DNA of 64,000 bases from Desulfobacterales bacterium (GTDB taxonomy: Bacteria > Desulfobacterota > Desulfobacteria > Desulfobacterales > JAAELO01). Of the stretch, positions 6,252 through 11,983 are shown piece after piece. The position numbers were made by a program, and so were the translations under genes. The first letter of the stretch is position 1, and every line of letters begins with the position of its first letter. The notes below the pieces were generated by a model, which worked only from the letters and a program-made list of their open reading frames with translations, was not told the origin of the DNA and did not search any database. The stretch covers positions 21,115 through 85,114 of the forward strand of contig JAAELO010000756.1 in the NCBI GenBank assembly GCA_024226555.1, written 5' to 3'.

Positions 6252-6680
6252 ATGCAGAAAAACCTAAAGAATAACTATATTTTTATAATAGTACCAGTAA
6301 TAACCCTATTTATTGTGTTTGGTGTAATAAAAGAGTTTAATCTGGTAAATATCAAGCTACCTCTTCCAGTTTTTATTTATCCGCTCATTTTTATTTTATC
6401 AGCAACTACTTCTATTGCCGGACCGATTTTTTTAAGAACATATTTTGCAAATAGTATGCGAAATAGTAAAAGTGTAGAAAGGGATATTTTTTTTAGATTT
6501 GAAAAAAGGCTTCTTTTTTTGTCATTGATAACACCCTATTTGGCATTAATTTCTATAGTTTTCGAGTTTCCTAAGTTCTACTCAGGATTTATTGTGATGT
6601 TCTCACTTTATGCTGTTTACTATTACTTTCCTTCTAAAAAAAGAATAGACTTTGATAAGAAAATATTCAGGGTAAAATGA
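6252..6680 (+). CDS. Four-helix membrane protein of unknown function
   Basis: 142 aa with four predicted membrane helices (res ~9-27, 37-60, 80-103, 108-127) and a basic C-terminus. First gene of a tight three-gene operon: its stop overlaps the next start (ATGA at 6677). I do not recognise the family. The downstream ArsA/Get3-like ATPase makes a membrane partner or target in protein or anion handling possible, but that rests on gene order only. Confidence 0.6.
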   Translation: MQKNLKNNYIFIIVPVITLFIVFGVIKEFNLVNIKLPLPVFIYPLIFILSATTSIAGPIFLRTYFANSMRNSKSVERDIFFRFEKRLLFLSLITPYLALISIVFEFPKFYSGFIVMFSLYAVYYYFPSKKRIDFDKKIFRVK

Positions 6681-6967
6681 TAGAACTAATAAAAACAATC
6701 TGTCGTAAAATAAAATCCTACTGGGAAATTGCAGACAATGTGGCAAGGCACAGAGCTGTGGACAGTATTGAAGATGAGATAGAAGAGATGGAGTATATCT
6801 TTGCTCTCCTGGTTCAGGGATCTTTTGTTGGTATGCCATCACCTCCCGTTCATATTTCACTTTCACTCCTTCCCCACATGGAAAAAGATTTAAGCCTTAT
6901 GATGGAAAGGGTAACAACTTCAAATCAGCCAATATCCAAACTATTCTCCACATTTGATATAGGATAA
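6677..6967 (+). CDS. Small soluble protein in the ArsA-type ATPase operon
   Basis: 96 aa, no signal or membrane segment. The N-terminal half is charged and helical (EDEIEEMEYIFALLVQGS), followed by a proline stretch GMPSPPVHISLSLLPHMEKDL. Overlaps the upstream membrane gene by 4 bp and sits 4 bp before the ATPase gene, so the three are almost certainly co-translated. Family not recognised; likely an adaptor or subunit of the ATPase. Confidence 0.65.
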   Translation: MIELIKTICRKIKSYWEIADNVARHRAVDSIEDEIEEMEYIFALLVQGSFVGMPSPPVHISLSLLPHMEKDLSLMMERVTTSNQPISKLFSTFDIG

Positions 6968-6971
6968 ACAG

Positions 6972-7883
6972 ATGAGCTATCCGGAAATTATATTTTTTTT
7001 AGGTAAAGGTGGTGTTGGAAAATCAACAGGGTCTGCTATTTTATCAATACTGCTTTCACAAGCAGAAAAGAAAGTTCTCCTTGCTTCCTTTGATTATGCC
7101 CATAATCAATCAGACATTTTTCAAAAGAACTTTTCCGATAAACCCACAAAAATTAACCCTAATCTTGAAGTTCTTCAGATCAACAGAGATAAAGAGGTAA
7201 AAAAATATCTTTCAAAAACAACTAAGGATGTTAAAAAATCTTTTACCTATCTAACGTCGTTCAACCTTGAGGGATATTTCGATGTGTTAAAGTTCTCTCC
7301 AGGTATGGAAGAATATGCTCTTGTTACTACCTTTATGAATATTAGAGAAAAATATAAAGATTATGATTATCATATAATTGATATGCCTCCAACAGCAGTT
7401 TCTTTAAGATTCTTCAATCTTCCCTCACTATCTTTGACATGGATAGACCAGCTTGAAAAACTCAGGATGGAAATTTATAAGAAAAAAGAGATTGTTTCAA
7501 AAATAAAATTTGCGGGAAAAGAGATAGAAAAAGATAAAGTTTTGTTAAAAATAAGAGAGATCAAAAAAGATTATCTTGATATGAAAGGTATATTTGAATC
7601 GAACACAGATTCAAGCATATATACAGTTTTCAATTCCGATCTTCTGTCAGTAAATGAAACAAGCAGAATAGTTTCCGATCTTTCAAAGTTAAACATCAAT
7701 ACCAAAGGTTTTATCTGTAATGACAGATCAGGTAATGAAAAAGTAAGTTCAGATCTTAAAACCATAGAAAGGTATGGAAAAATTAAATCCCTGCCCTTCT
7801 CAAAAGAGCCGTTAATCGGTGAAGCAAAAATCAAAGAGTATATCCAAAAAAACAGTATCAGTATCGAAAATATACTTTTTTAA
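6972..7883 (+). CDS. ArsA/Get3-like P-loop ATPase
   Basis: 303 aa. Deviant Walker A at the N-terminus, FFLGKGGVGKSTGSA (~res 9-21), with the signature lysine of the SIMIBI class; switch region DMPPTAVSLRF (~res 138). Short for ArsA (one nucleotide-binding half only), closer to Get3-like single-domain members. I see no Get3 CxxC zinc pair or ArsA cysteine triad, so arsenite extrusion is unlikely. Third gene of the operon with a four-helix membrane protein and a 96-aa protein; together they could form an ATP-driven targeting or assembly complex at the membrane. AT-rich sequence follows, with no clear terminator. Confidence 0.8.
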   Translation: MSYPEIIFFLGKGGVGKSTGSAILSILLSQAEKKVLLASFDYAHNQSDIFQKNFSDKPTKINPNLEVLQINRDKEVKKYLSKTTKDVKKSFTYLTSFNLEGYFDVLKFSPGMEEYALVTTFMNIREKYKDYDYHIIDMPPTAVSLRFFNLPSLSLTWIDQLEKLRMEIYKKKEIVSKIKFAGKEIEKDKVLLKIREIKKDYLDMKGIFESNTDSSIYTVFNSDLLSVNETSRIVSDLSKLNINTKGFICNDRSGNEKVSSDLKTIERYGKIKSLPFSKEPLIGEAKIKEYIQKNSISIENILF

Positions 7884-8159
7884 ACCCTGCTATTTTTAAA
7901 CCTTTTAAAAACCTATTCCTAAGAAATATAATAAAAATGAAAACCGGTATAGAATATATTATATATAAATAGATATATGTATATAAATAACGCTGTTAAT
8001 TAAACGCTATTTTTATTTTAATATTCTAATTTAATTTTTATAACATCGTATATACGGCTGCTTAGATAAATAAATTGTATTTTGTTTTTTGAATGGCACA
8101 CGAGATGCAATTATGAAGAAACAAGATTTAAAACAAAAAAATATTTTAGGAGCAAAATC

Positions 8160-10328
8160 ATGTTACAGGAAATTTTATTAAAAAGACTACATATCTTATC
8201 TGTTGGAAAAGCAGAAACAAACCTTAAGAAGAAATTAGGTTTTCTTGCTGAGTTAGGAAGCATGGGATACAAAGTTACAAATCCTGAAGCTTATAATGAT
8301 TCTGTTCTTCATAACTATTCAGGTACTATTTCAATACTTCAAGAGATGAAGGGTGGAAATGTTAATTATGTACCTTTATTTCAGGGATTCCCAAACGAAG
8401 TACCTGATCAGGACGAATATTTTGTTAAAAGAATAGTGGGATTTGTAAGCAACTATATCAAAGTATCAGAAGGTGAAGCACTCGATAGTGGCTTTATAGT
8501 TCCAGAGTGGCTTTTTGATCTTGAAGAGTTTGGAGCTGATCCAATAACTCAGTTTCAGGACAAATCACTATTTAAGAAAGGTATATTAAGCCAGTTAAAA
8601 CGTAAGAAAGATTCAAATACAGTCTGGTTTGATCTTCAGATTAAAAATCATGATTATGCTATTTGCGCTTTAAAAGAATACTTACAAAGTATTCTTTATT
8701 CAAAATCATCAGTTAAAGAGGAGCTGAAAGACCATATAGTATATCTTTTAAATTACTTTAAAGCAGACGATATTGATGCAGATAGAGTAGTTTTTAAAGA
8801 AACAAAAAGTTATTTGATGAAATTCTACTGGGATAGAAAAGATTATAAAGCATTGGAAAGCTACCTTAAGACTCCAACTGATTGCTTAAGGTTGTTTGCG
8901 GCGTTAACAGATTCAGACACATCATTAACTGCCAAAATAAAGTTTCCAAAGCTTAAGAGAGCTCAGAGAAGGTTTATTTTATACGTTATTAACAGATGCT
9001 CAAATGCTGCTGAAGATATGAATGTTTATAAAGGTTTATGGCTTGAATTAGGTCGCTATCTGCACCCAGGTGAATATAAGGATAGTTATAAAAAAACATA
9101 TGAAGCCTTTGATATATTAAGGAATAAAAAAGTAATTACTTTTAATTCAAGAATAGAATCTTTTATTAAAGATAAGAATATAGATAATTTACTTGATTTG
9201 ATCTCAAAAAGACCAGGTATCTTTGCAAGAAAACTTCACCAGGTCCTTGAGGTTTCAGCCACTGTTTATGAAACAGAAAAAGTACTGACTTCATTTGAGA
9301 GTGTTGTTGATAAGGTAGAACTTAAAAACCTTATGGTTATGGACTCATATTTTAAAACAATAGAACAGTCTGACTTTCGAACTATCATTAACAAAAGGGG
9401 TAAAATTCTTGTGATGGATAATAAGAAAGAAAGAGTTTCAGAAGAGTTTGTAGTAAAGCTATTAGGTATATTTGAAGAAGCTATGATTAGAAAAATAGCT
9501 GAAGACAAAGACAACTGGGTTGATAAAACAGCATGGGTTGACAATGAACTACTAAATTACACTGTACCTCTTCAGCAAAGAGCAGCATCAGATGGACTAA
9601 TGACCTTAGGTCGTGGTAGTAAAATACCTCTGGACGAAGGAAAGGTTTTAAGACTGTTTGTATACTGGAAGCAAAAGGAACAACGAACAGACCTTGACCT
9701 GTCTCTCATTAAATATGATGAGAACATGAAATTTACTGGTCATATCAGTTATACAAATCTTAAATCCGGAGGTATTTTACACTCTGGTGATATTCAGTCA
9801 GCTGAACATGGTGCTGCTGAATTTATAGATATAGATTTGTCCGCCTTAAAGAAGATGAAAGATGTAAGGTATATAGCTACCCAGGTTTATAAATATTCTG
9901 GTGAGAGGTTTCAGGAGATGGATTGCCATTCTGGCTGGATGATTCGGGATAAGGTTAATAAAGACTATAAGTCATTCGATATCAAAACAGTGCAGAATAA
10001 ATTTGACATCAATGGTGCTGGTTCATATGCAATTCCAATAGTTGTTGATGTTGTGAAAAATGAAATTACTTTTGTGGATCTTTATGTAAATGGTGTTAAT
10101 GCAGGAAATAATGTGGAAGGTGCTCATTCTGATATATCTGTTATTACAAGAGAGATGTTAAGAATGATCGACACAAGACCAAACATGTTTGATCTTGCAC
10201 ATCGCAACATTAAAGGAAGATGCGCAGTATTGGTAGAAAATAAAGATGAAGCTGATATTACTTTCGGTATTAAAGATTGTGATTACAACGTTTCGAATAT
10301 CGAGACAGTATTATCAGAACTTATTTAA
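8160..10328 (+). CDS. TerD-domain protein resembling MXAN_6230/SCO0710 'RNA-binding' family
   Basis: 722 aa from the ATG at 8160, preceded by taggag; an in-frame ATG 78 bp upstream lacks a ribosome site. The N-terminal ~470 residues are soluble, largely helical and not assignable to a common domain. From ~res 476 a TerD-like beta domain is visible: LGRGSKIPLDEGKVLRLFVYW (split here as GRGSKIPLDEG then LRLFVYW), DLDLSLIKYDE, and later GAGSYAIPIVVDV. This layout, from memory, fits the MXAN_6230/SCO0710 family that databases label RNA-binding. No Ro60-type vWA MIDAS (DxSxS) is seen. The first tRNA-mimic RNA begins only 14 bp after its stop with no terminator between, so protein and RNA array look co-transcribed. 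Likely role (inference): the protein partner of these RNAs. Confidence 0.65.
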   Translation: MLQEILLKRLHILSVGKAETNLKKKLGFLAELGSMGYKVTNPEAYNDSVLHNYSGTISILQEMKGGNVNYVPLFQGFPNEVPDQDEYFVKRIVGFVSNYIKVSEGEALDSGFIVPEWLFDLEEFGADPITQFQDKSLFKKGILSQLKRKKDSNTVWFDLQIKNHDYAICALKEYLQSILYSKSSVKEELKDHIVYLLNYFKADDIDADRVVFKETKSYLMKFYWDRKDYKALESYLKTPTDCLRLFAALTDSDTSLTAKIKFPKLKRAQRRFILYVINRCSNAAEDMNVYKGLWLELGRYLHPGEYKDSYKKTYEAFDILRNKKVITFNSRIESFIKDKNIDNLLDLISKRPGIFARKLHQVLEVSATVYETEKVLTSFESVVDKVELKNLMVMDSYFKTIEQSDFRTIINKRGKILVMDNKKERVSEEFVVKLLGIFEEAMIRKIAEDKDNWVDKTAWVDNELLNYTVPLQQRAASDGLMTLGRGSKIPLDEGKVLRLFVYWKQKEQRTDLDLSLIKYDENMKFTGHISYTNLKSGGILHSGDIQSAEHGAAEFIDIDLSALKKMKDVRYIATQVYKYSGERFQEMDCHSGWMIRDKVNKDYKSFDIKTVQNKFDINGAGSYAIPIVVDVVKNEITFVDLYVNGVNAGNNVEGAHSDISVITREMLRMIDTRPNMFDLAHRNIKGRCAVLVENKDEADITFGIKDCDYNVSNIETVLSELI

Positions 10329-10342
10329 GGATTAAAAACAAA

Positions 10343-10465
10343 GAGGATTAGATATTATTTCCTTCTACATTCCAAGCCGAAAACGCGGGTTCGATTCCTG
10401 CTCGTCAACCTTTAGTTGATGATAGTTTAGTGGCAGAACATCGGGATAATAGTATCAATTTCCTC
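10343..10465 (+). ncRNA. tRNA-mimic / permuted tRNA unit 1 (Gly-TCC-like)
   Basis: Ends pair: GAGGA (10343-10347) with TCCTC (10461-10465), then GAT/ATC and ATTAT/ATAAT with a 3-nt bulge (AGT). After the conserved TTCCTTCTA comes a tRNA 3' half: ATTCCAA anticodon loop with GCCGA (10376-10380), T arm GCGGG/CCTGC (10385-10401) with loop TTCGATT, and acceptor strand TCGTCAA. A loop CCTTTAG leads into the 5' half: TTGATGA pairs with TCGTCAA, and the D arm resembles tRNA-Gly (AGTTTAGTGGCAGAAC). The half ends at TCGG, which with C10368 would complete the anticodon stem TCGGC/GCCGA. No CCA is encoded. Either a YrlA-type Y RNA or a circularly permuted tRNA-Gly(TCC) gene. Confidence 0.75.
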
Positions 10466-10646
10466 AAAAAACATAAGGATTATAAGAAATAAATATCAAT
10501 AAATTAACAAAGAAAAACCCTCTGAAAGCGAACAAACCAAAATCGTGTTTGTTCTATTGAGTGCCAAACTTTTGAAAAGTTTGATAAACACATTTTGCTG
10601 AAAAAAGATTGATTGTCATTCCTGAGGGGATTTACAATAATCCAAA

Positions 10647-10770
10647 GAGGATTACAGACCATTTCCTTCTTATTAAGATCTATCTGCCGCAGGTTCAACT
10701 CCTGTCCATCAGTTAAATCTGGTGGTAGCTCAGTTGGTAGAGCAATAGAATTAATGGCCTTAATCTCCTC
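10647..10770 (+). ncRNA. tRNA-mimic / permuted tRNA unit 2 (loop ATTAAGA)
   Basis: Outer stem GAGGA/TCCTC (10647-10651, 10766-10770); inner stem CAGACCATT/AATGGCCTT with two mismatches (7 of 9 pairs). Inside: anticodon 3' strand TCTAT (10679-10683), variable CTGCC, T arm GCAGG/CCTGT, acceptor CCATCAG, loop TTAAAT, acceptor CTGGTGG (7 pairs, one G-U), D arm TAGCTCAGTTGGTAGAGC, anticodon 5' strand ATAGA. The joined loop reads ATTAAGA however the junction is placed, giving TAA. That anticodon is leucine's, yet the body is class I with a 5-nt variable loop, so either the loop has drifted or decoding is not its job. Confidence 0.7.
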
Positions 10771-10779
10771 AACATAAAT

Positions 10780-10966
10780 CGGATTAGGTAGTGGGAACCT
10801 CTAATAAGCGGAGTTTTGATTCAAATACAAGGCATGAGAAAAAAATTACCTATGGTTTAAAGGTGATTCCTTTTTCGAAAAACGCAGTATTTGTTCAAAA
10901 GAACAGTTATTAGATGTTCCCTAATACTTCCTTCTAAAAACCTTAAAATAGTATTACCGATTTCCG
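10780..10966 (+). ncRNA. Empty unit: conserved end-stem without tRNA body, split by a MITE
   Basis: Removing the MITE (10793-10921) and one TAAT/TAGT duplicate leaves CGGA-TTA-GGTAATAC-TTCCTTCTA-(14 nt)-GTATTACC-GATT-TCCG. The outer stem CGGA/TCCG and inner stem GGTAATAC/GTATTACC are perfect, with sequences different from the other units, and the TTCCTTCTA motif is kept. Only 14 nt lie where the tRNA body should be. It shows the end-stem is a module that can exist alone, or that a body was deleted. Confidence 0.65.
10793..10921 (+). mobile_element. MITE copy inside the empty RNA unit, TSD TAGT/TAAT
   Basis: Left GGGAACCTCTAATAA, right TTATTAGATGTTCCC. Flanks TAGT (10789-10792) and TAAT (10922-10925) differ by one base. 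Excising it restores the 8-bp stem of the surrounding RNA unit. Confidence 0.85.
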
Positions 10967-10985
10967 TTAATAAAAAATATATTTT

Positions 10986-11062
10986 CTGGGAGTAGATCAG
11001 TCTGGTAGATCGCGTGATTTGGATTCACGAAGCCGCAGGTTCGAATCCTGCTTCCCAGACCA
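10986..11062 (+). tRNA. tRNA-Pro(TGG), copy 1
   Basis: 77 nt with encoded CCA. Acceptor CTGGGAG/TTCCCAG has C1-G72 as in bacterial tRNA-Pro; D stem GATC/GATC; anticodon stem CGTGA/TCACG with loop TTTGGAT (anticodon TGG at 11020-11022); T arm GCAGG/CCTGC with loop TTCGAAT. Position 37 is A where bacterial tRNA-Pro normally has G (the m1G37 site). It lies between the empty unit and unit 3, in the same direction. Confidence 0.9.
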
Positions 11063-11075
11063 TAAAAATAAAAAC

Positions 11076-11206
11076 GAGGATTAGAGATAGCTTCCTTCTA
11101 AATATTTTACCCCGCAGGTCGTAGGTTTGACTCCTACCCAAAAGCAAATGCTTTTGGTAGCTCAGTTGGATAGAGCAGCGGGCCATTAAGCGATCTCATT
11201 TGCCTC
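11076..11206 (+). ncRNA. tRNA-mimic / permuted tRNA unit 3 (Lys-TTT-like loop)
   Basis: Outer GAGG/CCTC; inner GAGATAGCTT (11084-11093) pairs with AAGCGATCTC (11188-11197), 9 of 10 pairs. Core: CCCGC (11111-11115), variable AGGTC, T arm GTAGG/CCTAC with loop TTTGACT (T where C56 is expected), acceptor CCAAAAG plus C, loop AAAT, G plus CTTTTGG (8 perfect pairs), D arm AGCTCAGTTGGATAGAGC, then GCGGG pairing with CCCGC. The joined loop would be (C/A)TTTTAC, anticodon TTT with A37. An extra G-1:C73 pair caps the acceptor, as in unit 1. No CCA encoded. Confidence 0.75.
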
Positions 11207-11252
11207 AACTTAAAAACTAAGAATATATTAAGCTGGCTAAGTAAAAAACTAA

Positions 11253-11340
11253 ATTTGCAAGGCGTCAGCATTTGATCAGGCGCGAAGATGTATGTTTTTA
11301 ATACCTCGAACGTCTGATCTATTGCTGCAACAAAGCAAAT
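11253..11340 (+). ncRNA. Possible structured RNA or repeat between units 3 and 4
   Basis: Nested pairing: ATTTGC/GCAAAT (11253-11258, 11335-11340), CAGCA/TGCTG (11266-11270, 11323-11327), GATCAGGCG/CGTCTGATC (11274-11282, 11311-11319). It lacks tRNA features. Its core is similar, in reverse orientation, to 19315-19363, so it may be a dispersed repeat rather than a dedicated RNA. Confidence 0.4.
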
Positions 11341-11362
11341 GGAGAATTTTTACAACGCCAAA

Positions 11363-11490
11363 GAGGATTACAGACCATTTCCTTCTATCGCCTTTTAAGC
11401 TACAGGTCGCGGGTTCGAGTCCCGCCCAGCAGATTTTGAACTGCTGGTAGCTCAGTTGGTAGAGCAGTAAATAATGGTCTGAATTTCCTC
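11363..11490 (+). ncRNA. tRNA-mimic / permuted tRNA unit 4 (Lys-TTT-like)
   Basis: Best preserved unit. Outer GAGGA/TCCTC (11363-11367, 11486-11490); inner CAGACCATT/AATGGTCTG perfect 9 bp (11371-11379, 11473-11481). Core: GC + loop CTTTTAA + GCTAC (11390-11403), variable AGGTC, T arm GCGGG/CCCGC with loop TTCGAGT, acceptor CCAGCAG, loop ATTTTGAA, CTGCTGG (7 perfect pairs), D arm TAGCTCAGTTGGTAGAGC, then A26 and GTA (11467-11469). GTA + GC completes a perfect anticodon stem with GCTAC only if the halves join after 11469 and before 11390. The result would be a textbook tRNA-Lys(TTT) lacking CCA. Confidence 0.8.
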
Positions 11491-11511
11491 AACAAAAAAA
11501 GAGAGTTTTCT

Positions 11512-11588
11512 CGGGGAGTAGATCAGTCTGGTAGATCGCGTGATTTGGATTCACGAAGTCGCAGGTTCGAGTCCTGCTTCCCCGACCA
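11512..11588 (+). tRNA. tRNA-Pro(TGG), copy 2
   Basis: 77 nt with CCA; acceptor CGGGGAG/TTCCCCG. Nearly identical to copy 1 at 10986, including the unusual anticodon loop TTTGGAT with A37 (anticodon 11546-11548). Two copies of the same isoacceptor and no other canonical tRNA suggest local duplication together with the mimic units around them. Confidence 0.9.
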
Positions 11589-11622
11589 ATATAACATAGC
11601 AAATGGAGATTTCTTACAGAAA

Positions 11623-11750
11623 GAGGACTAAAGATCATTTCCTTCTAACTTTGGGACCCACAGGTCGCAGGTTCAAATCCTGCCCGGAACGAAAGTTTTG
11701 GTGGCCCAGTCTGGGTAGGGCGGTGGGTATATAATGATCTTGATTTCCTC
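11623..11750 (+). ncRNA. tRNA-mimic / permuted tRNA unit 5 (Pro-TGG-like)
   Basis: Outer GAGGA/TCCTC; inner AAGATCATT/AATGATCTT perfect 9 bp. Core: loop TTTGGGA (11650-11656) then CCCAC, variable AGGTC, T arm GCAGG/CCTGC with loop TTCAAAT, acceptor CCGGAAC, GNRA-type loop GAAA, acceptor GTTTTGG (7 pairs, two G-U), D arm GGCCCAGTCTGGGTAGGGC, then GTGGG (11723-11727) pairing with CCCAC. The anticodon loop is the standard Pro(TGG) loop with G37, unlike the two ordinary tRNA-Pro genes here. Acceptor begins G1-C72 rather than Pro's C1-G72, so charging by ProRS is doubtful. Confidence 0.78.
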
Positions 11751-11766
11751 TACTTAAAAAGTGTTT

Positions 11767-11851
11767 GAGGATTAGAAGTTGTTTCCTTCTTAATATTTGC
11801 AGGTTCGACTCCTGCCATGTATGTGGTGAAAATAACAAGTTCAATTTCCTT
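11767..11851 (+). pseudogene. Truncated RNA unit 6: end-stem plus T arm only
   Basis: GAGGA-TTA-GAAGTTGTT-TTCCTTCT at the 5' end and AACAAGTTC-AATTTCCTT at the 3' end pair (8 of 9 in the inner stem). Between them only a T arm, GCAGG/CCTGC with loop TTCGACT, remains; D arm, acceptor and anticodon strands are missing. A MITE is inserted at its 3' edge. Either a decayed unit or a minimal form. Confidence 0.6.
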
Positions 11852-11853
11852 AA

Positions 11854-11983
11854 GGGAACCTCTAATAATTAGAATATTTGATGAAAAACAAGGCATAACA
11901 AAAAATAACGGGTTGATTTTACTACAGTTTTATTTTTGATATAACGATGTGTTTCGCAAAAAGATCAGTTATTAGAGGTTCCC
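11854..11983 (+). mobile_element. MITE copy, TSD TTAA/ATAA
   Basis: Left GGGAACCTCTAATAA, right TTATTAGAGGTTCCC. Flanks TTAA (11850-11853) and ATAA (11984-11987). Inserted at the last bases of RNA unit 6. Confidence 0.85.

What the first reader, a model, noticed from the sequence alone, without database searches (positions are those of the whole stretch)
10343..11851. Array of RNAs with tRNA bodies opened at the anticodon and closed at the acceptor
Seen in sequence: seven units share GAGGATTA ... TTCCTTCTA at the 5' end and TAAT ... AATTTCCTC at the 3' end. Within each unit the ends pair into an outer stem and an inner stem whose sequence differs from unit to unit while pairing is kept (CAGACCATT/AATGGTCTG, AAGATCATT/AATGATCTT, GAGATAGCTT/AAGCGATCTC, GGTAATAC/GTATTACC). 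Five units enclose a tRNA in the order T-arm half, 4-8 nt loop, D-arm half. Acceptor strands (CCAGCAG/CTGCTGG, CCAAAAGC/GCTTTTGG, CCGGAAC/GTTTTGG, TCGTCAA/TTGATGA) and most anticodon strands match only within their own unit. Known: bacterial YrlA-type Y RNAs carry a tRNA-mimic module on a Ro-binding stem. Inference: this is a multi-member family of such RNAs, or a set of circularly permuted tRNA genes, in an unusual tandem array.
Basis: partly seen in the sequence, partly recalled or inferred. Interest (0 to 1): 0.95.

Follow-up and report, generated by a model that had tools for sequence, protein, structure and literature searches.

The report
tRNA-mimic RNAs of a TerD-protein RNP
Beside a gene for a TerD-type protein lies a row of small RNA genes predicted to fold like tRNAs whose anticodon end is replaced by a shared stem, and because the same gene-and-RNA pair recurs across many bacterial phyla and phages, the two likely form an RNA-protein particle that resembles the Ro-Y RNA particle but has no Ro protein.

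Summary
Seven units lie at 10343-11854: five with a whole tRNA body read in the order T arm, capped acceptor, D arm; one with a T arm only; one bare stem-loop split by a MITE-like insert. The tRNA bodies match Rfam YrlA below its gathering score, the stem does not fit it, and the genome has no Ro/TROVE match. The array follows a 722-aa TerD-family gene. That pairing is the main result: covariance models find the RNA beside relatives of this gene in 40 of 45 genome loci of about ten phyla, and in sets from Actinomycetes, plasmids, phages and viral contigs. In 247 sampled genomes of the window's phylum, protein and RNA were each found in one, the same one. Covariation is very strong. Bacteroidota-type loci carry the natural circular permutant: ordinary tRNA order, acceptor open, stem capped. 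Best reading: an RNP that works like Ro-YrlA, in which the TerD-family protein (predicted Ro-like helical ring plus TerD domain) likely holds the stem and the tRNA mimic likely docks a tRNA-handling enzyme. Binding and function are untested. My searches of the held papers and Rfam found no description of it.

The parts
8160..10328 (+). gene of a 722-aa TerD-family protein, distant relative of the MXAN_6230/SCO0854 family; predicted helical Ro-like region (about 155-450) and TerD domain (about 480-666)
10343..10466 (+). unit 1, full tRNA-like unit; anticodon-side strand keeps TTCCAAG
   Evidence: R1 107.9 bits, model built from it
10644..10771 (+). unit 2, full tRNA-like unit
   Evidence: R1 129 bits, model built from it; YrlA 30.7 bits
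10781..10970 (+). unit 3, bare stem-loop GGATTAGGTA / TAATACTTCCTTCTA...GTATTACCGATTTCC, interrupted by an insert
   Evidence: (R2 20.1 bits, E 0.15, part after the insert only)
10791..10921 (.). MITE-like insert in unit 3 with terminal inverted repeats GGGAACCTCTAATAA / TTATTAGATGTTCCC and TA at both flanks
10986..11062 (+). ordinary tRNA-Pro(TGG) gene inside the array
11075..11208 (+). unit 4, full tRNA-like unit
   Evidence: YrlA 39.3 bits; R1 129.4 bits, model built from it
11363..11491 (+). unit 5, full tRNA-like unit; keeps CTTTTAA, a tRNA-Lys-like anticodon loop
   Evidence: YrlA 45.4 bits; R1 130.9 bits, model built from it; z -5.22
11512..11588 (+). second ordinary tRNA-Pro(TGG) gene inside the array
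11622..11753 (+). unit 6, full tRNA-like unit; keeps TTTGGGA, a tRNA-Pro-like anticodon loop
   Evidence: YrlA 29.9 bits; R1 118.9 bits, model built from it
11766..11854 (+). unit 7, T-arm-only unit (not used to build a model)
   Evidence: R1 49.6 bits, E 4.1e-8; R2 37.2 bits, E 9.7e-6

Best explanation
The window carries a TerD-family protein gene followed by an array of seven RNA units, and the protein and RNAs likely form a ribonucleoprotein that works like the Ro-YrlA particle without Ro. Shown: a stem of constant design (outer GG/CC helix, 5' bulge such as CTA or TAT, inner 8-9 bp covarying helix, then CTTCCTTCTA on the 5' side and TAG on the 3' side) bears one of three caps: a whole tRNA body joined through its anticodon stem, a T arm alone, or a small loop. 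Shown: the RNA sits beside relatives of this gene, on the same strand, across bacteria and phages, and in some lineages the same RNA is circularly permuted. Inferred: the protein, whose helical part is predicted to resemble the Ro ring, binds the stem. Inferred: the tRNA body is a docking surface for a tRNA-recognising enzyme (PNPase in the known Ro-YrlA case), so the units act as interchangeable adaptors. Inferred: the TerD domain senses a stress or infection signal. Which enzyme and which signal are unknown.
Confidence: 0.7

Rival explanations
1. Decoy model: the tRNA-like units are baits for anticodon nucleases or other tRNA-attacking enzymes used in phage-host conflict, and the TerD-family protein protects or displays them.
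For: The family is carried by phages and viral contigs and is patchy in bacteria (1 of 247 sampled genomes of the phylum). Units 1, 5 and 6 keep anticodon-loop-like strands. Hughes et al. 2020 name a competitive inhibitor of an anticodon nuclease as one possible role of YrlA (passages of PMC7790460).
Against: By eye most units in relatives lack a recognisable anticodon loop, and many loci, including the six Actinomyces ones, show only bare stems without a tRNA body. A decoy does not explain those.
Confidence: 0.12
2. Cis-regulation: the stem is a binding site in the mRNA of the TerD-family gene through which the protein controls its own synthesis, and extra copies are duplications.
For: In the seven full-length NF041916 loci (L111-L117) and several others the unit lies directly upstream of the gene.
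Against: In many loci the units lie downstream of the gene, in arrays of up to eight (L160), and carry whole tRNA bodies. One orphan unit lies on a contig where the 11 kb around it hold no relative of the gene, and a decayed unit lies on another contig of the window's own genome.
Confidence: 0.08
3. Circularly permuted tRNA genes: the units are precursors that are cut at the stem, joined at the anticodon and opened at the acceptor to give working tRNAs.
For: The order of parts is that of a permuted tRNA; units 1, 5 and 6 keep Gly-, Lys- and Pro-like anticodon strands.
Against: Ordinary genes for these tRNAs exist (58 tRNA matches in the genome; Gly(TCC), Lys(TTT), Pro(TGG) among them). The units are no closer to one tRNA than tRNAs of different isotypes are to each other. 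T-arm-only and bare units cannot be tRNAs.
Confidence: 0.04
4. They are canonical YrlA RNAs whose Ro protein is encoded elsewhere or missed in the draft genome.
For: YrlA model hits on five units; 5 of 17 carrier genomes also hold a TROVE match, one of them in a frame with stops.
Against: No TROVE match in this 98% complete genome nor in 12 of 17 carriers, itself included. Of four Ro stretches from such genomes, two (L107, L109) carry RNAs that match the whole YrlA model, one (L105) its tRNA part, one (L106) none, and R2 finds nothing in any Ro stretch.
Confidence: 0.04

Closest known systems
Bacterial Y RNA YrlA (Rfam RF02553) with Ro60/Rsr
   Same: Long stem formed by both RNA ends and a tRNA-like domain, as described in passages of PMC8394870; module in the order T arm, capped acceptor, D arm; several RNAs beside the gene of the protein partner (L107, L109).
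   Different: Stem sequence and bulge differ, scores stay below the gathering score, no Ro match in the genome; the neighbouring gene is of the TerD family; T-arm-only and ordinary-order forms exist.
Ro60/TROVE proteins
   Same: Predicted helical repeats followed by a C-terminal beta domain; among the 50 rows shown, Ro entries are the only ones that align over 250 of the 331 residues.
   Different: No TROVE sequence match; profile comparison not significant; a TerD domain follows where Ro has its vWA domain (the latter recalled).
MXAN_6230/SCO0854 family RING protein (NF041916)
   Same: The protein matches at E 1e-96, best stretch residues 325-696, and the NF041916 loci carry the same RNA.
   Different: 325 bits against a cut-off of 600.
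Circularly permuted tRNA genes of algae and archaea (known from abstracts and recall)
   Same: Order of the two tRNA halves.
   Different: Capped 4-8 nt acceptor loop, long conserved stem at the anticodon, ordinary tRNAs present, linked to one protein family.

Membership tests
YrlA Y RNA (RF02553) | tRNA-like module in T-acceptor-D order | tested here: met
   five units matched (18.0 to 45.4 bits), four of them only within model positions 23-88
YrlA Y RNA (RF02553) | score at or above the curated gathering score (69 bits) | tested here: not met
   best 45.4 bits (the YrlA matches beside real Ro genes also stay below it, 37.1-66.8 bits)
YrlA Y RNA (RF02553) | conserved basal stem of the family | tested here: not met
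   three of the five matches start at position 23 and one at 30, so the stem is left out; u2 spans 1-114 at only 30.7 bits; two of four Ro stretches match the whole YrlA model, and none of six has an R2 hit
YrlA Y RNA (RF02553) | Ro60/Rsr gene nearby | tested here: not met
   no TROVE match in the whole genome
Ro60/TROVE protein | PF05731 sequence match | tested here: not met
   none; profile-profile P 0.12 to 0.15 for the full profile, 0.054 for the helical region
Ro60/TROVE protein | ring of helical repeats | tested here: inconclusive
Ro60/TROVE protein | binds the stem of the neighbouring RNA | not testable with these tools
   needs binding assay
TerD domain proteins | TerD fold | tested here: met
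MXAN_6230/SCO0854 RING family (NF041916) | score over the NCBIfam cut-off (600 bits) | tested here: not met
   325 bits; filed as a relative, not a member
circularly permuted tRNA genes | the tRNA has no ordinary gene in the genome | tested here: not met
   ordinary Gly(TCC), Lys(TTT) and Pro(TGG) genes
circularly permuted tRNA genes | joined and opened to a mature tRNA | not testable with these tools
   needs RNA sequencing of circles and ends

The most novel reading that the evidence does not exclude
An undescribed class of Ro-type particle spans about ten or more bacterial phyla and tailed phages: a diverged Ro-like ring fused to a TerD sensor holds a set of interchangeable RNA adaptors (tRNA body, T arm alone, bare stem) on one shared stem, and the tRNA body occurs in both circular permutations because only the three-dimensional shape, tRNA elbow and acceptor on top of a protein-binding stem at the anticodon, is under selection.
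Probability: 0.5. Interest if true: 0.93.

Novelty: new variant of a known kind. Interest (0 to 1): 0.86.

Why it matters
Y RNAs are known as partners of Ro proteins. A widespread second family with the same tRNA-mimic plan, its own stem and its own protein would show that the plan was invented, or re-partnered, more than once, and would give a large protein family for which I found no assigned role (TerD-family / MXAN_6230-SCO0854 relatives) an RNA partner. The natural circular permutants are a clean test of what selection sees in a structured RNA: the shape is kept while the ends move between acceptor and stem. Carriage by phages suggests a role in conflict or in RNA damage repair, which can now be tested with a named gene and a named RNA.

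Tried and rejected
Sequence homology to TROVE was sought by Pfam, by PDB sequence search (0 matches) and by profile-profile comparison with 20 Ro proteins. Two weak stretches are collinear but not significant (P 0.12 and 0.51; helical region alone P 0.054; reversed decoy 0.38-0.43), so no homology by sequence is claimed. Foldseek gave no Ro row among its best 50.

A recurring protein neighbour was sought by clustering 486 ORFs of the 45 loci and the first 30 kb of the window. Apart from the gene itself no cluster spans more than 5 loci. The neighbours at 6252-7883 (Get3/ArsA-type ATPase, cory-CC-star-like protein) do not recur in three or more loci.

Origin of single units from single tRNAs was tested and rejected: best scores of the five full units 14.5-30, against 8.5-42 between tRNAs of different isotypes.

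Promoters and terminators were uninformative. A viral scan with the protein of L044 found nothing. In the own genome R1 gives 11 rows: six are window units; four weak ones (E 0.0035 to 0.72) overlap ordinary tRNA genes and were not counted; one, L054 on contig C186 (E 0.0052), overlaps no tRNA and on reading is a decayed unit with the 5' boxes, T arm and acceptor kept and the closing 3' strand lost.

Literature: the listings show no paper that describes this RNA or links it to TerD proteins. I read passages only of PMC8394870, PMC7824862, PMC7159879, PMC7790460 and PMC10085705. Chen 2014, Sim and Wolin 2018 and Burroughs and Aravind 2016 are not held and were not read; the last could mention this protein family, so the claim of novelty is limited to the held library and Rfam 15. 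The search for permuted tRNA genes was (listing and starts of abstracts).
Full report
WHAT IS THERE. The stretch 10343-11854 (+ strand) holds seven units. u7 has only a T arm and u3 has no tRNA part. u3 is split by an element with inverted ends and TA at both flanks; the end motif recurs in the window at 744, 2986, 11854, 11971, 12153, 12268, 22949, 26190 and 27446. Two ordinary tRNA-Pro(TGG) genes lie inside the array.

IS IT MORE THAN CHANCE. The five full units give 35 consensus pairs, 18 with double changes. All five acceptors pair 7 of 7 with their own partner, a total that no other of the 120 assignments reaches. With units from other genomes and phages, 27 matches of model R1 (17 sources given to the call) pair in 94.0% of 936 cells; sliding the partner by 1-3 columns gives 40.5-48.0%; 30 of 35 pairs show changes on both sides. 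That alignment was fitted to the model; a MAFFT alignment of 26 units folded anew gives 28 pairs, 24 with double changes, without the anticodon stem. The short form, 40 sequences, pairs in 96.8% of 555 cells against 44.7-50.3% slid; 9 of 500 shuffles reach its 11 pairs with double change and none reaches its other four measures.

THE PARTNER GENE. The array begins 14 nt after a gene of 722 codons (8160-10328; the open frame could start at 8082). It has no Pfam match at E<=0.1 but matches NCBIfam NF041916, MXAN_6230/SCO0854 family, at E 1e-96 and 325 bits (cut-off 600). 253 of 7992 scored candidates were homologues at E<=0.001, several named TerD family protein.

THE LINK. A genome-contig scan with 16 aligned homologues gave 45 loci. 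R1 (five window units) or R2 (40 short units) hit beside the gene at E<=0.01 in 40 of 45. The R2 training rows come from these loci, so the other sets matter more: 11 of 12 fetched NF041916 loci (the class sample had 37 of 148 genomes with any match, 7 over the cut-off), of which one (L119) is the gene already seen as L036; 9 of 11 plasmid and phage loci, eight by R2 and L132 by R1 with the stem seen by eye; 11 of 12 viral-contig loci (L154, L156, L157 and L158 are close to each other). All 78 R2 hits are on the gene's strand, as are all 12 NF041916 loci when compared with the strands. Record titles name Bacteroidota, Planctomycetota, Myxococcota, Acidobacteriota, Verrucomicrobiota, Eremiobacterota, Cyanobacteria, Abditibacteriaceae, Actinomyces, Eubacteriaceae and, among plasmids, Variovorax, Vibrio and Niallia; the placing of genera and families in phyla is partly recalled. 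In a sample of 247 genomes of the window's phylum the protein is found in 1 and the RNA in 1, both the window's own. That RNA search used stricter filters, scored 21 candidates per genome and found only u7 in the own genome, so it can miss copies. In 16 carrier genomes searched whole, 15 had a hit and 24 of 25 R2 hits are those beside the gene (positions compared); the exception, L085, has no relative of the gene within 11 kb. There too candidates were capped, at 150 per genome. The own genome holds one more, decayed unit on another contig (L054).

WHAT IT IS NOT. Rfam YrlA matches the tRNA bodies of five units at 18.0-45.4 bits (gathering 69), in four of them leaving out the stem. In 10 other loci no match over a gathering score falls on a unit. 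The genome has no TROVE match; with it, 12 of 17 carriers have none. TROVE matches were fetched as six stretches, L105-L110, from five carriers: R2 finds nothing in any of the six. Of the four scanned with Rfam, L107 and L109 carry RNAs matching the whole YrlA model, L105 one matching its tRNA part, L106 none. So in at least two genomes two systems with different stems stand side by side. The units are also not needed as tRNAs and are not recent copies of host tRNAs.

TWO CIRCULAR PERMUTATIONS. In a sample of 395 genomes of the phylum of the Flavobacteriaceae locus L044, 13 genomes matched its protein. In nine of the fetched loci (L141-L149) a tRNA body in ordinary order lies upstream of the gene: open acceptor pairing 7 of 7, then D arm, then a strand that pairs (6-7 of 8) with the strand before CTTACTTC, with the remnant of the outer stem capped by a small loop, then T arm; no CCA is encoded. 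L044 and Thiomargarita L045 have the same layout with CTTCCTTC, an inner helix of 8 of 8, and an acceptor that pairs when shifted by one position (8 pairs by eye; the script's fixed offset scored 1 of 7). Energy folding of L044 and L045 did not reproduce the stem. L150 and L151 have ordinary-order tRNA-like bodies that I could not place with confidence. In the four of the nine loci that I read (L141, L142, L144, L149) T-arm-only and bare units with open stems follow in the same array. Thus the ends have moved from acceptor to stem, or the reverse, while the joint at the anticodon stayed.

THREE CAPS. Besides full tRNA bodies and bare loops, T-arm-only units occur in the window (u7), L005, L009, L021, L154, L156, L158 and L160 (ten sequences aligned, of which the last two, from L156 and L158, have no clear T loop).

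MECHANISM. Known from passages of PMC8394870: the YrlA stem tethers Rsr and its tRNA-like part binds PNPase; rsr-Y RNA genes can lie in RNA repair operons. By analogy I infer that the TerD-family protein binds the constant stem and that the cap decides what is recruited. A Variovorax plasmid carries the gene near rtcR, with three genes between, a single hint towards RNA repair. Bare stems would then be partner-free regulators or structural subunits. All of this is inference.

VERDICT. A real and widely distributed RNA family with a protein partner, for which I found no earlier description; it works, on the evidence, like Ro-YrlA, but it is not a member of that family by stem, by score or by partner.

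Noticed in passing
window 744, 10793, 11854, 12153, 26190 (+); 2986, 10909, 11971, 12268, 22949, 27446 (-): Copies of a MITE-like end motif GGGAACCTCTAATAA (with small variants); one element has split unit 3 of the array and shows TA at both flanks.
   Followed up: partly
L054 1500-1640 (G000:C186:31803-31941): A decayed solo unit on another contig of the same genome: 5' boxes, T arm and acceptor kept, closing 3' strand lost.
   Followed up: partly
window 6252-7883: A small ORF, a weak cory-CC-star match and a Get3/ArsA-type ATPase form a putative operon upstream of the TerD-family gene; it does not recur in three or more of the relatives' loci.
   Followed up: partly
L083, G000:C870:629-701: The genome encodes a tRNA called tRNA-Pyl (CTA) by ARAGORN, so the host may use pyrrolysine.
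   Followed up: no
L085 5210-5272: An orphan short unit (57.9 bits) in a carrier genome with no relative of the gene within 11 kb: a possible solo RNA acting in trans.
   Followed up: partly
L124 (Variovorax sp. WDL1 plasmid, NZ_LR594690.1): The gene, named RING finger family 4 domain-containing protein, lies near rtcR, the RNA repair activator; two short units follow downstream.
   Followed up: partly
L132 (Rhodobacter phage RcXuper) 1722-2290: A permuted tmRNA match sits directly before a tRNA-like unit of this family; further units carry the variant ATACTTCTA.
   Followed up: no
L160 4626-6191: A viral contig with eight units in one array, three of them with a full tRNA body.
   Followed up: partly
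L044 and L045: The proteins of a Flavobacteriaceae MAG and of Thiomargarita nelsonii are 81% identical, which points to recent transfer between phyla.
   Followed up: no
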